A stretch of DNA of 8,538 nt from NCBI GenBank assembly GCA_027061995.1, contig JAMOUT010000067.1:1-8538 (forward strand), in the 5' to 3' direction. This DNA comes from Candidatus Aminicenantota bacterium (GTDB lineage: Bacteria; Acidobacteriota; Aminicenantia; JAMOAD01). The notes beneath the pieces were generated by a model that saw only the letters and a list, made by a program, of their open reading frames with translations, was not told the DNA's origin and searched no databases. This document shows positions 2,702 to 6,616 of the stretch, one piece after another. The translations under genes were made by a program, and so were the position numbers. Numbering within the stretch: position 1 is the first letter of the stretch; the number at the start of each line of letters is the position of its first letter.

Positions 2702-3001
2702 TTACTTCTTTTTCTGGGTATCGCTTACAGGTGGTTTTTTTGTTTTAACATCTTTAACCACTGATTTGGGTCCCTTTGCTTGAATAAGATAAAGGCTAAG
2801 AGATGTAACCATAAATAGTATAGCAAGAGTTACAGTAATTTTATGTAAAATTGTTGCAGCACCTCTTGGTCCGAAAACAGTCTGACTTCCCGTCATACCG
2901 AAAGCACTCGCAAGATCTCCACCTTTGCCTGATTGCATTAATACCACTATTACCAGCAAGAAACTAACAATTACATGAATAACCAAAAGTAATGTTGTCA
3001 T
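2702..3001 (-). CDS. secG: Protein-export membrane protein SecG
   Basis: SecG is the small auxiliary subunit of the SecYEG translocon. The 99-residue product has two membrane segments (about residues 3-22 and 55-73). The cytoplasmic loop between them carries the conserved block LMQSGKGGDLASAFG followed by GSQTVFGPRG (residues 21-47). The C-terminal tail is charged and lysine-rich (ends QKKK), as often seen. An AAGGAG SD (3010-3015) lies 8 bases before the ATG and overlaps the end of tpiA, whose stop is only 3 bases away, so translation is probably coupled. The stop codon lies 10 bases from the mature 5' end of tRNA-Leu, so RNase P cleavage would give the secG message a very short 3' UTR. Confidence 0.96.
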   Translation of the reverse strand: MTTLLLVIHVIVSFLLVIVVLMQSGKGGDLASAFGMTGSQTVFGPRGAATILHKITVTLAILFMVTSLSLYLIQAKGPKSVVKDVKTKKPPVSDTQKKK

Positions 3002-3004
3002 CTA

Positions 3005-3775
3005 CTATTCTCCTTCTAATCTCTTTCCTTCCTCTATAATACTCAAGAAAGATTCACCTTTTAATGAAGCTCCTCCAATCAGAGCTCCGTCTATATCCTC
3101 CTCTTTAAGAAGAGAACAGGCGTTCCCGGGATTAACCGAACCGCCGTAGAGTATTATAGCATAATTTCCCACATCATTTCCATACTTTTCGGTTATTTTT
3201 TTTCTAATAAAAGAATGAACCTCTTCCGCTTGTTCGGGGGAAGCTGTTTCTCCCGTCCCGATTGCCCAAATAGGTTCATAAGCTATTATTATTTTTTTTG
3301 CATTTTTTTTATCTATTCCTGCAAAAGCTTTTTCAATCTGTTTACCGATTTTATCAAATATTTTTCCCTCTTTTCTCTCTTGAAGAGTCTCCCCGACACA
3401 AACAATAGGGGTAATATGATAATCAAGAGCAACTTTCACTTTCCTGTTAACCAAATCATCGGTTTCATAAAAATATTTTCTTCTCTCCGAATGTCCGAGA
3501 ATCACATAATGTGCTCCGCTGTCTTTTACCATCAGAGGGGAGATCTCACCTGTATAAGCTCCCTCTTTTTCATAAAACATGTTTTGTGCGGCAACTTCTA
3601 TGGTTGTATCTTTTAAAGCATCCGATACTACTTTAAGAGATGTAAAAGGGGGAGCGACAATCACTTTAATCTCTCCGCCCGGTTTATAATTCTCTTTCAA
3701 ATATACAGCCAGTTCTTTCGCATCTTCCGAAGTTTTATTCATCTTCCAATTACCTGCTATTACAATAGGTCTCAT
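3005..3775 (-). CDS. tpiA: Triosephosphate isomerase
   Basis: TIM interconverts dihydroxyacetone phosphate and glyceraldehyde 3-phosphate in the cytoplasm. The 256-residue chain is full length and keeps every key residue: Asn9 and Lys11 in AGNWKMN, the electrophile His95 in ILGHSERR, the catalytic base Glu167 in AYEPIWAIGTG (loop 6 follows directly), and the phosphate-binding YGGSVNPGN (210-217) and GGASL (234-238) loops. The ATG is 1 base after the pgk stop. Its SD is TAAGGAGGT, complementary to all nine bases ACCUCCUUA at the 3' end of bacterial 16S rRNA, which predicts very strong initiation coupled to pgk. Order gap-pgk-tpiA is a common glycolytic cluster. Confidence 0.98.
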   Translation of the reverse strand: MRPIVIAGNWKMNKTSEDAKELAVYLKENYKPGGEIKVIVAPPFTSLKVVSDALKDTTIEVAAQNMFYEKEGAYTGEISPLMVKDSGAHYVILGHSERRKYFYETDDLVNRKVKVALDYHITPIVCVGETLQERKEGKIFDKIGKQIEKAFAGIDKKNAKKIIIAYEPIWAIGTGETASPEQAEEVHSFIRKKITEKYGNDVGNYAIILYGGSVNPGNACSLLKEEDIDGALIGGASLKGESFLSIIEEGKRLEGE

Positions 3776-3776
3776 T

Positions 3777-4961
3777 TTATACCTCCTTATCCGATAAACA
3801 CTCTATCCCGGGGAGTTTTTTCCCCGATAAAAATTCAAGAGAAGCTCCTCCGCCTGTTGATATATGCGTTATTTTATCCGCAACTCCCGCTTTTTTCACG
3901 GCGGAAACAGAATCTCCCCCTCCGATTATTGAAATCCCTTCAGATTCTGCCACAGCTTTTGCCATATCAAAAGTTCCTTTTGAAAATTTTTTAATCTCAA
4001 AAACTCCCATGGGACCATTCCACACTATAAGTTTGGCATTTCCGATTCTGTTTTTATACTTCTCAATCGTCTTCTCACCTATATCAACACCTATATAATC
4101 ATCTTCTATATTTTCCGTAAAAATTCTAACCTGAGCATCCTCATTTATCTCTTTTACACACAGATGATCTTCGGGGAATAGAATCTCAACCCCTTTTGCT
4201 TCCGCTTTTTCCATAATCTCTTTTGTTTTTTCAAAATGCTCGTTATCAAAAAGGGATTTACCAATCTCATACCCTTTTGCTTTCAGGAAAGTATAAGCCA
4301 TCCCTCCACCAACCAAAATAGTATCAACTTTATCAAGGAGATTTTCCATAACGGGAATCTTATCTTTAACTTTGGCACCGCCGAGTATGGCAATATAAGG
4401 TTTTTTAGGATTTTCAACCGCCATTGACAGATATTCCAACTCTTTTGAAATCAAAAAGCCCATAGCCGCAACTTTTACAAAAGAAGCTATCCCCACAACA
4501 GAAGCATGAGCTCTGTGTGATGCTCCGAAAGCATCATTAACATATATATCGACCCCTTTTGCCAGCTCTTTTGAAAATTCCTCATCATTCTTTGTCTCTC
4601 CCGAAACATATCTCGTGTTTTCGAGGAGAAAAATGTCTCCGCTTTTCAAATTGTTTTTAATATCATCAACTTTTTCACCTATGGTTTCTCCTATGAAAAT
4701 CACTTTTTTATCCAAAACAGAAGACAGCTTTTCGGCAACAGGTTTTAAAGAAAACTCGGGTTTTCTCTCCCCTTCGGGTCTTCCCAAATGGGAAGCTATG
4801 ATAAGTTTTGCACCTTTTTCATTCAAATACTTTATTGTTTTAAGAGCCTTTACTATCCTTGTATCATCCTGGATAATCCCCTCTTTTAAAGGAACATTAA
4901 AATCAACCCTGAGAAATACGGTTTTATTTGAAACATTTATATCATCGACTCTCAGTTTCAT
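3777..4961 (-). CDS. pgk: Phosphoglycerate kinase
   Basis: PGK transfers phosphate from 1,3-bisphosphoglycerate to ADP, the first ATP-yielding step of glycolysis. The 394-residue two-domain enzyme is intact: RVDFNVP (18-24), SHLGRPEG (57-64) and DAFGASHRAHASVVG (143-157) form the substrate-binding N domain. GGAKVKDK (194-201), WNGPMGVFE (314-322), GGGDS (347-351) and STGGGASLEFL (368-378) form the nucleotide-binding C domain. I chose the ATG at 4961 rather than the in-frame TTG at 4979: the ATG has a GGAGG site 5 bases upstream, that SD would otherwise be coding sequence, and MKLRVDDINV matches usual family starts. It follows gap by 62 bases and overlaps the SD of tpiA. Confidence 0.97.
   Translation of the reverse strand: MKLRVDDINVSNKTVFLRVDFNVPLKEGIIQDDTRIVKALKTIKYLNEKGAKLIIASHLGRPEGERKPEFSLKPVAEKLSSVLDKKVIFIGETIGEKVDDIKNNLKSGDIFLLENTRYVSGETKNDEEFSKELAKGVDIYVNDAFGASHRAHASVVGIASFVKVAAMGFLISKELEYLSMAVENPKKPYIAILGGAKVKDKIPVMENLLDKVDTILVGGGMAYTFLKAKGYEIGKSLFDNEHFEKTKEIMEKAEAKGVEILFPEDHLCVKEINEDAQVRIFTENIEDDYIGVDIGEKTIEKYKNRIGNAKLIVWNGPMGVFEIKKFSKGTFDMAKAVAESEGISIIGGGDSVSAVKKAGVADKITHISTGGGASLEFLSGKKLPGIECLSDKEV
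3781..3789 (-). promoter_or_regulatory. tpiA ribosome binding site, full 9-base anti-SD match
   Basis: The site reads TAAGGAGGT and lies inside the last codons of pgk, 5 bases before the tpiA ATG. It matches the standard bacterial anti-SD over its full length and forms the motif AAGGAGGTATAAAATG, in which the pgk stop TAA is embedded. The same motif with one change stands at the macro/gap junction. Confidence 0.85.
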
Positions 4962-4966
4962 CTCCT

Positions 4967-4971
4967 CCTCC
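4967..4971 (-). promoter_or_regulatory. pgk ribosome binding site
   Basis: GGAGG lies 5 bases before the ATG at 4961, inside the purine run CGGAGGAGGAG. It decides the pgk start against an in-frame TTG six codons upstream, which has no SD of its own (A/T-rich leader). Confidence 0.75.
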
Positions 4972-4999
4972 GTTTTCAATTATTTATTAAATATATAAG

Positions 5000-5023: not shown

Positions 5024-6025
5024 TTATAATGTTTTCGAGATTTTAATCGCAAGATCTCTCACTCTGCAAGAGTATCCCCATTCATTATCATACCAAGACA
5101 AGACTTTTATGAGGTTTCCTCCGATTGCAACAACATTATCCATATCAACGATGGAAGATCTGTCATCACCTGTATAATCTTTTGAAACAAGAGGTTCGTA
5201 AGAATAACCGAGAATCCCTTTAAGCTCTCCGTCAGCAGCTTTTTCTAAGGCTTTTTTCACCTCTTCGGTAGTTGTCTCTTTTTCAACATGGACAACCAAA
5301 TCAATAAGAGATACATCAGGGGTAGGAACTCTTATGGATATTCCGTGAAGCTTGCCTTCAAGTTCCTTAATTACCAAACCCACCGCTTTAGCGGCTCCGG
5401 TTGTAGTCGGAATCATTGAAAGTGCAGCCGATCTTGCCCTTCTTAAATCTTTATGGGGCAAATCCAAAATTCTCTGATCATTCGTATATGAGTGAACCGT
5501 AGTCATACTCCCTTTTATTATTTTAAAATTATCATGAAGAACCTTGGCTACGGGAGCAACACAATTTGTTGTGCAGGAAGCATTTGAAATTATATTATGT
5601 TTTTCAGGATCATAAAGATTATCATTTACCCCGAGAACTATTGTAACATCGGGATCTGTTGCGGGTGCGGAGATTATCACTTTTTTTGCCCCCGCTTTAA
5701 GATGTTTCTCCGCATCGGGTCTTTTTCTGAAAAGGCCTGTTGATTCGATAACTATATCAATCTTATCCTCTTTCCAAGGTAAATCTTCGGGATTTCTTAT
5801 AGCGGTAACTTTGATTTTCTTTCCGCTTACCTCAATATAATCATCACCATATTTCACCTCTTCCTTAAAAATTCCGAAAACACTGTCATATTTTAAAAGA
5901 TGAGCAAGTGTTTTCGCACTCGTTATATCATTAATTGCAACAATATCAATATCAGGGTTATGATATGAAGCCCTGAAAACATTTCTCCCTATTCTTCCGA
6001 AACCATTGATTGCTACTCTTACCAT
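5024..6025 (-). CDS. gap: Glyceraldehyde-3-phosphate dehydrogenase, type I, NAD-dependent
   Basis: GAPDH oxidises glyceraldehyde 3-phosphate with phosphate and NAD+ to 1,3-bisphosphoglycerate, the substrate of the next gene's product. The 333-residue enzyme has the Rossmann motif INGFGRIGR (6-14), Asp33 (AIND) for NAD ribose binding, catalytic Cys151 in SNASCTTNC, His178 in TTVHSYTNDQ, the S-loop DLPHKDLRRARSA, and WYDNEWGYS (311-319). Asp33 together with the Leu-Pro pair at 189-190 indicates NAD rather than NADP preference. The ATG is 1 base after the macro gene stop, and its SD, TAAGGAGG, is inside the macro gene's last codons. It therefore depends on upstream transcription unless an internal promoter exists. 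Confidence 0.98.
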   Translation of the reverse strand: MVRVAINGFGRIGRNVFRASYHNPDIDIVAINDITSAKTLAHLLKYDSVFGIFKEEVKYGDDYIEVSGKKIKVTAIRNPEDLPWKEDKIDIVIESTGLFRKRPDAEKHLKAGAKKVIISAPATDPDVTIVLGVNDNLYDPEKHNIISNASCTTNCVAPVAKVLHDNFKIIKGSMTTVHSYTNDQRILDLPHKDLRRARSAALSMIPTTTGAAKAVGLVIKELEGKLHGISIRVPTPDVSLIDLVVHVEKETTTEEVKKALEKAADGELKGILGYSYEPLVSKDYTGDDRSSIVDMDNVVAIGGNLIKVLSWYDNEWGYSCRVRDLAIKISKTL

Positions 6026-6026
6026 T

Positions 6027-6581
6027 TTATTCCTCCTTAAATATTTTTCCTATTTTATTGTTAAAAATATCGGTTGTTGTTTTATCAATATTTGTGCATC
6101 GAATCTCATTAAAACTATTTTTATTATTTAATATAAATTTTTTTATGGTTTCAAGGATTATCTCGGCTCCCCTTTCCTTGGGAAAACCGAAAATCCCCGT
6201 TGAGATTGCCGGAAGTGCCATATGTTTAATCCCTTTTGATTTGGCAAGCTCAAGAGCCGAAAAAACCGCAGAACTTAATTTGTTTTCTTCATCACCTTCA
6301 CCCCATCTCGGTCCTACAGTATGAATCACGAAATTCGCCTTTAAATTACCCGCACCCGTTATAACCGCTTTTCCGACAGGGACAAAACCTATTTTATCAC
6401 TTTCCTCTTGGATTATACCCCCCCCTTTTCTGACTATGGCTCCCGCAACACCGCCTCCGTGCTTAAGATATGAGTTAGCGGCATTAACAATAGCCTCAGT
6501 CTCCTCTTCGGTAATATCTCCCCTAACTATTTTAACCCTTGTTCCTTTAAAATCTATCTCATTCACCACCGAATTTTTCAT
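6027..6581 (-). CDS. Macro-domain protein (ADP-ribose binding / probable ADP-ribosyl hydrolase)
   Basis: Macro domains bind ADP-ribose and many remove it from proteins or hydrolyse O-acetyl-ADP-ribose. The 184-residue protein is a single macro domain: RGDIT (20-24), AIVNAAN (30-36), the diphosphate-binding HGGGVAGAI (41-49), VIHTVGP (85-91) and [11 protein letters not shown] (124-134). The HGGG.A.AI loop and the IQEESDKIG stretch look closer to the archaeal Af1521-like group than to the GGGGVDGAIH form of E. coli YmdB; substrate and activity cannot be read from this. I prefer the ATG at 6581 over a TTG two codons upstream. There is no SD, but a strong promoter ends 6 bases before the ATG, so the message may be leaderless. 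It is coupled to gap with a 1-base gap, an unusual partner that suggests a link to NAD/ADP-ribose turnover. Confidence 0.93.
6032..6039 (-). promoter_or_regulatory. gap ribosome binding site inside the macro gene
   Basis: TAAGGAGG matches 8 of the 9 anti-SD positions and lies 6 bases before the gap ATG, within the last codons of the macro gene. The motif AAGGAGGAATAAAATG contains the macro stop TAA and the gap ATG, one base apart. Confidence 0.85.
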
Positions 6582-6587
6582 ATACAA

Positions 6588-6616
6588 ATTATAATTAATT
6601 TATCATTTTTTGTAAA
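6588..6616 (-). promoter_or_regulatory. Probable sigma-70 promoter of the macro-gap-pgk-tpiA unit
   Basis: The -35 box TTTACA (6616-6611) matches 5 of 6 consensus bases, the spacer is exactly 17 bases, and the -10 box TATAAT (6593-6588) is perfect. Seven bases downstream of the -10 is the A of the macro ATG at 6581, the expected start point. Upstream is A/T-rich with T-runs, which could act as an UP element. This is the strongest promoter-like sequence I see in the window. Confidence 0.75.

What the first reader, a model, noticed from the sequence alone, without database searches (positions are those of the whole stretch)
6027..6581. A macro-domain gene heads the glycolytic operon and is coupled to gap
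Seen: an intact macro-domain gene ends 1 base before the gap ATG, its last codons contain the gap SD, and the only strong promoter lies before the macro gene. Known: macro domains bind or remove ADP-ribose, and GAPDH is an NAD-binding enzyme reported to be modified by ADP-ribose. Inferred: the macro protein may repair or reverse ADP-ribosylation of GAPDH, or clear NAD breakdown products, in step with glycolytic flux. The pairing is not a textbook gap-operon arrangement.
Basis: partly seen in the sequence, partly recalled or inferred. Interest (0 to 1): 0.6.

Follow-up and report, generated by a model that had tools for sequence, protein, structure and literature searches.

The report
Macro-domain gene heading a glycolysis operon
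In one small bacterial family (Candidatus Aminicenantes), an ordinary gene for an enzyme that handles ADP-ribose sits first in the transcription unit of the glycolysis genes; the arrangement is real and conserved there, but it is unique to that family, and the evidence favours a lineage-specific gene placement over a special partnership with the glycolytic enzyme GAPDH.

Summary
An intact 184-aa macrodomain gene (6581-6027, minus strand) ends 1 nt before the gap ATG and carries the gap Shine-Dalgarno in its last codons. The best promoter match in the interval lies just before it. All five family members tested (3 genera) keep macro-gap order with an identical TTTACA-17-TATAAT promoter and an ATG only 5-6 nt behind the -10. 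The macro mRNA is therefore probably leaderless. In four of five the upstream gene is divergent, so macro is the operon head. Synonymous sites are mostly saturated and dN/dS is about 0.1, so both gene and layout are under selection.

The functional reading is weak. Adjacency is absent from the 77 other genomes of the class that hold both genes, and from the homologues of other phyla. Close relatives (63-66% identical) are equally tightly coupled to unrelated genes (a beta-propeller and a DUF4388 protein). The protein is an Af1521/TTHA0132-like MacroD-type domain lacking the catalytic Asp; such enzymes cleave ADP-ribose esters (Asp/Glu, O-acetyl-ADP-ribose), not the Arg/Ser sites mapped on mammalian GAPDH. 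The genome has three sirtuins but no DarT, KptA or PF03747 hydrolase. Best reading: a housekeeping ADP-ribose-ester hydrolase placed at the operon head in one family's ancestor.

The parts
6027..6581 (-). macrodomain protein, MacroD-type, Af1521/TTHA0132-like (184 aa)
   Evidence: PF01661 E 6e-38; AF2 model pLDDT 96.7; Foldseek to OiMacroD TM 0.94, MACROD2 0.88
6588..6616 (-). promoter TTTACA-17-TATAAT; -10 ends 6 nt before the macro ATG (probable leaderless mRNA)
   Evidence: 11/12 match; same hexamers and spacing in 5 of 5 family members
6027..6045 (-). macro 3' end containing the gap Shine-Dalgarno (AAGGAGG)
   Evidence: sequence; 1-nt macro-gap spacing in 4 of 5 family members, 9 nt in the fifth
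5024..6025 (-). gap, type I glyceraldehyde-3-phosphate dehydrogenase
   Evidence: PF00044/PF02800; TIGR01534 above its cut-off
3777..4979 (-). pgk, phosphoglycerate kinase
   Evidence: PF00162 E 4.5e-156
3005..3775 (-). tpiA, triosephosphate isomerase
   Evidence: ORF; syntenic homologue in the relatives
2702..3001 (-). secG
   Evidence: ORF; syntenic homologue in L061/L062
6695..8179 (-). lysS, upstream co-directional neighbour; not conserved next to macro in the relatives
   Evidence: PF00152; other genes upstream in L061, L062, L038

Best explanation
The gene encodes a housekeeping MacroD-type ADP-ribose-ester hydrolase of the Asp-less Af1521/TTHA0132 kind. It most likely hydrolyses O-acetyl-ADP-ribose made by the cell's sirtuins and/or ADP-ribose on acidic residues, by substrate-assisted catalysis. 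In the ancestor of one Aminicenantia family it came to lie between the promoter and gap and has stayed there as a leaderless first cistron, so it is co-expressed with gap-pgk-tpi-secG. The placement mainly gives it strong constitutive expression; its action is not specific to GAPDH. Shown: gene, fold, promoter conservation, family-limited adjacency, purifying selection. Inferred: transcription start, joint transcript, enzymatic activity, substrate.
For: Family: PF01661 full length; best PDB sequence relatives PARP14 macro, TTHA0132, MACROD1; model pLDDT 96.7; Foldseek TM 0.94 to OiMacroD and 0.88 to MACROD2. ADP-ribose-site residues N33, N36, G42, G44, H87, G90, S127, G129 are invariant in 68 homologues and F131 is F or Y in all. 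The MacroD Asp position is A46, Ala in 67 of 68; Af1521 and TTHA0132 also have Ala there and Af1521 is active (PMC5413906). Placement: 5/5 in family f1, 0/77 elsewhere in the class. Macro tree: f1 monophyletic (100/99), sister to f4 (99/91); in f4 the gene overlaps by 4 nt an NHL/6-bladed propeller gene and a DUF4388 gene, and other clades have still other neighbours. dN/dS 0.095 for the one clearly unsaturated pair. Three SIR2 genes in the genome, no DarT, KptA or PF03747.
Against: The order has survived with 1-nt spacing in 4 of 5 members while most synonymous sites were saturated, which neutral hitch-hiking need not give. Macro and sirtuins do not clearly co-occur in the class (67/24/30/21, Fisher p 0.09, not corrected for phylogeny), so the O-acetyl-ADP-ribose substrate is a guess. 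No activity was measured.
Confidence: 0.62

Rival explanations
1. Glycolysis-linked metabolite control: the hydrolase keeps O-acetyl-ADP-ribose or other NAD-derived ADP-ribose compounds low in proportion to glycolytic and NAD flux, and the operon placement exists for that coupling.
For: Conserved operon head in the family; three sirtuins in the own genome and at least one in every f1 genome; MacroD-type enzymes hydrolyse O-acetyl-ADP-ribose (PMC7050489).
Against: Closest homologues sit in unrelated operons; macro-sirtuin co-occurrence in the class not significant; many g18 genomes have macro without a sirtuin.
Confidence: 0.18
2. One reading: the protein removes ADP-ribose from GAPDH.
For: Adjacency and coupling to gap; GAPDH ADP-ribosylation lowers its activity in mammals (PMC6721828).
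Against: Mapped mammalian GAPDH sites are Arg and Ser (PMC6721828), not the acidic esters that MacroD-type enzymes cleave (PMC7050489); no DarT or KptA in the genome; gap operons of the other families of the class have no macro.
Confidence: 0.07
3. Expression device: the leaderless macro cistron mainly serves as the translated leader that sets gap translation by coupling; the conserved layout reflects gap expression, not macro chemistry.
For: Invariant promoter-ATG distance of 5-6 nt and 1-nt junction in 4 of 5; other families mostly give gap a promoter-like site of its own at about -50 to -60 with a short leader.
Against: Macro is under protein-level purifying selection (dN/dS 0.095) with an intact ADP-ribose site, and macro genes persist elsewhere without gap.
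Confidence: 0.1

Closest known systems
TTHA0132 (Thermus thermophilus macrodomain, PDB 2DX6)
   Same: Single-domain bacterial macrodomain, 44% identity in the structural alignment, Ala at the MacroD Asp position (PMC5413906).
   Different: Shorter (159 aa); no gap operon context known to me (not tested).
Af1521 (Archaeoglobus fulgidus ADP-ribosylhydrolase)
   Same: Same fold, Ala in place of the catalytic Asp, hydrolytically active in the literature (PMC5413906).
   Different: About 31% identical; archaeal; no activity shown for the window protein.
MacroD1/MacroD2, YmdB, OiMacroD
   Same: Fold and ADP-ribose loops (TM 0.83-0.94).
   Different: These have the His/Asp dyad Asp (PMC5413906, PMC7050489), which the window protein lacks (A46).
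SirTM / zinc-macrodomain / GcvH-L lipoylation operons
   Same: Macrodomain in an operon with a central-metabolism protein.
   Different: There the operon also encodes the ADP-ribose writer (SirTM) and the macrodomain binds zinc (PMC7050489); here no writer is in the operon and the glycine-rich loop shows no extension.

Membership tests
Macrodomain (PF01661) | Full-length match to the Macro profile | tested here: met
   E 6e-38, profile 1-118 of 118
Macrodomain (PF01661) | Macro fold | tested here: met
   AF2 pLDDT 96.7; Foldseek TM 0.94 to OiMacroD with ADPR
MacroD-type hydrolase class | Conserved Asn of the active site and glycine-rich catalytic loop | tested here: met
   N33 and N36 in 68/68; G42, G44 invariant, G43 in 67/68
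MacroD-type hydrolase class | His/Asp dyad Asp (D102 of MacroD2); not present in all members of the class (PMC7050489), so not strictly defining | tested here: not met
   A46, Ala in 67 of 68 homologues; same as Af1521 and TTHA0132 (PMC5413906)
MacroD-type hydrolase class | Hydrolysis of O-acetyl-ADP-ribose or Asp/Glu-ADP-ribose | not testable with these tools
   needs purified protein
DarG antitoxin | DarT partner gene | tested here: not met
   No DarT (PF14487) in G000-G004
SirTM-linked zinc macrodomain | Writer sirtuin in the same operon | tested here: not met
   No sirtuin in the window; the three SIR2 genes lie on contigs C22, C57, C92
GAPDH-dedicated eraser (hypothetical) | Macro-gap linkage beyond one family | tested here: not met
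   5/5 in f1, 0/77 elsewhere in the class; none among the fetched loci from outside the family

The most novel reading that the evidence does not exclude
A leaderless macrodomain cistron was recruited as the head of the glycolytic operon so that removal of O-acetyl-ADP-ribose or ADP-ribose esters rises with glycolytic gene expression, linking NAD-derived signals to sugar flux in an uncultivated lineage.
Probability: 0.12. Interest if true: 0.55.

Novelty: new member of a known kind. Interest (0 to 1): 0.27.

Why it matters
If the pairing were functional it would be a natural hint about what stand-alone bacterial macrodomains do, which is open even for E. coli YmdB (PMC7050489). As the evidence stands it is a cautionary case: tight translational coupling was conserved within one family, yet the same gene is equally tightly coupled to unrelated genes in the sister clade of the macro tree.

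Tried and rejected
Looked for macro-gap adjacency outside the family in 80 named-genome loci and 142 class genomes: none. Looked for a recurrent macro neighbour that would give a function: neighbours are clade-specific only. Tested sirtuin co-occurrence as a substrate clue: not significant. Looked for other ADP-ribose writers or erasers in the own genome: no DarT, KptA or PF03747. Rfam gave only the two tRNAs, so no known riboswitch or leader RNA before macro. No paper on a macro-gap operon was found in the held library, nor on leaderless genes in Aminicenantes. One Thermodesulfovibrio contig has macro about 0.75 kb before tpi-secG (L103), but an opposite ORF lies between and gap is absent, so it was rejected as a parallel. 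rpmB first seemed missing in the window compared with relatives; a shorter ORF cut-off showed it at 2499-2272.

Full report
What is there. The minus strand of the window carries lysS (8179-6695), a 113-nt gap, a macrodomain gene (6581-6027), gap (6025-5024), pgk, tpiA, secG, two tRNAs, rpmB, ffh, rpsP and the start of rimM (rimM, rpsP, rpmB and secG named by reading the sequences). The macro ORF is intact, matches PF01661 over the full profile (E 6e-38) and is the genome's only macro gene. Its TAA stop is one base before the gap ATG, and the AAGGAGG of its last codons is the gap ribosome-binding site.

Organism. The nearest named loci, 71-74% identical in macro and 86-92% in gap, are from Candidatus Aminicenantes MAGs. 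The genome is a 104-contig draft, 95% complete.

Promoter and leaderless start. TTTACA-17-TATAAT (6616-6588) is the best site between lysS and gap. The same hexamers with a 17-nt spacer stand before macro in all five family genomes, and the macro ATG follows the -10 by 5 or 6 nt in each. Transcription normally starts about 7 nt after the -10 (general knowledge), so the mRNA should begin at or within about a base or two of the ATG. In the whole genome the strict pattern TTKACA-N16-18-TATAAT-N4-7-ATG occurs 4 times against 0 for its reversed control, out of 42 such promoters, control 12. Two other cases coincide with plausible start codons: an APS-kinase/DUF2061 protein and an AAA_14/DUF4143 protein. 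So leaderless genes probably exist in this genome, and macro is one of them. The upstream gene is lysS here (same strand), a T2SSG-like gene, an acyl-CoA-dehydrogenase fragment or a membrane-protein ORF elsewhere, all pointing away. Hence macro is the first gene of the unit.

Conservation and its limit. Macro sits directly before gap in the window and in all four other held genomes of the family, three genera. Spacing is 1 nt in four and 9 nt in one. Synonymous sites are saturated or nearly so for most pairs; the one clearly unsaturated pair gives macro dN/dS 0.095 (gap 0.021, pgk 0.062). The layout is therefore maintained by selection or at least not broken for a long time. Outside the family it is absent: of 142 class genomes 91 have a macro gene, 122 a gap gene and 82 both; adjacency is 5/5 in the family and 0/77 elsewhere. 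None of the homologue loci from outside the family (Caldifarciminota/WOR-3, Desulfurellales, Thermotogota, Caldisericota, Chloroflexota, archaea and others) has gap nearby. Limits: that scan reaches only close macro relatives, MAGs are fragmented, and a different macro type beside gap in another phylum is not excluded.

History. The macro tree has the family as one clade (100/99), sister to family f4 (99/91). In f4 the same gene overlaps by 4 nt an upstream NHL/6-bladed-propeller gene and a downstream DUF4388 gene: equally tight coupling, unrelated partners. Other clades have branched-chain-amino-acid-type transport genes, pyrE-like, DJ-1-like, RNase H-like or isochorismatase-like neighbours (names from reading the sequences, not from a profile search). 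In the other families of the class for which gap loci were read, most gap genes have a promoter-like site at about -50 to -60 and a short leader. The pgk tree also pairs the family with f4 (93/93), but the gap tree pairs it with genus g7 of f5 (100/98), so gap alone was probably exchanged between these lineages, direction unknown.

What the protein is. AF2 gives mean pLDDT 96.7; Foldseek ranks OiMacroD with ADP-ribose first (TM 0.94), with MACROD2, macroH2A, PARP14, Af1521 and TTHA0132 among the next. N33, N36, G42, G44, H87, G90, S127 and G129 are invariant among 68 homologues, and F131 is F or Y in all. The position of the MacroD dyad Asp is A46. Af1521 and TTHA0132 share that Ala, and Af1521 is active (PMC5413906); MacroD-type enzymes without this Asp are known and a substrate-assisted mechanism is proposed (PMC7050489). 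So it is most likely an active ester hydrolase, but this is inference.

Mechanism. MacroD-type enzymes cleave ADP-ribose from Asp/Glu and from O-acetyl-ADP-ribose (PMC7050489). Mapped mammalian GAPDH sites are Arg and Ser (PMC6721828), which does not fit. The genome has three SIR2 genes, possible makers of O-acetyl-ADP-ribose, and no DarT, KptA or PF03747. Macro and SIR2 do not co-occur significantly in the class (67/24/30/21, p 0.09), so the sirtuin link is only the likeliest guess. ADP-ribosyltransferases are diverse, and others may be present unseen.

Verdict. A true and conserved, but family-limited, arrangement of an ordinary macrodomain. It deserves a note, chiefly for the leaderless operon head, and is not evidence for GAPDH repair.

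Noticed in passing
window 5024-6025; L031-L060: The gap gene of this family groups with gap of genus g7 of family f5 (100/98), against the pgk tree (f1 with f4, 93/93; g7 inside f5, 100/96): probable lateral exchange of gap alone within the glycolytic operon.
   Followed up: partly
L143:769-1503, L141:1235-2401: Two further genes of the genome (APS kinase/DUF2061; AAA_14/DUF4143) start 4-7 nt behind a perfect -35/-10, suggesting that leaderless mRNAs occur in Aminicenantia.
   Followed up: partly
L062:3649-3891: An 80-aa ORF repeating the N-terminus of the acyl-CoA dehydrogenase at L062:924-2066 lies upstream of macro in G001 and G004: a duplicated gene fragment beside a pentapeptide-repeat/ion-channel-like gene.
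   Followed up: no
G022:C16:8862-9872, G007:C98:41399-42376, G056:C405:845-2430: DarT next to a second, divergent macro domain on the same strand: probable DarTG toxin-antitoxin pairs in a few Aminicenantia genomes.
   Followed up: no
L023:368-3008 (family f4): Macro is embedded with 4-nt overlaps between an NHL/6-bladed beta-propeller gene and a DUF4388-TPR gene, conserved in the f4 genomes seen.
   Followed up: partly
L103:572-2935: Thermodesulfovibrio sp. SKYB9 has a macro gene about 0.75 kb before tpi-secG with an opposite ORF between, and a second macro gene on another contig, L100.
   Followed up: no
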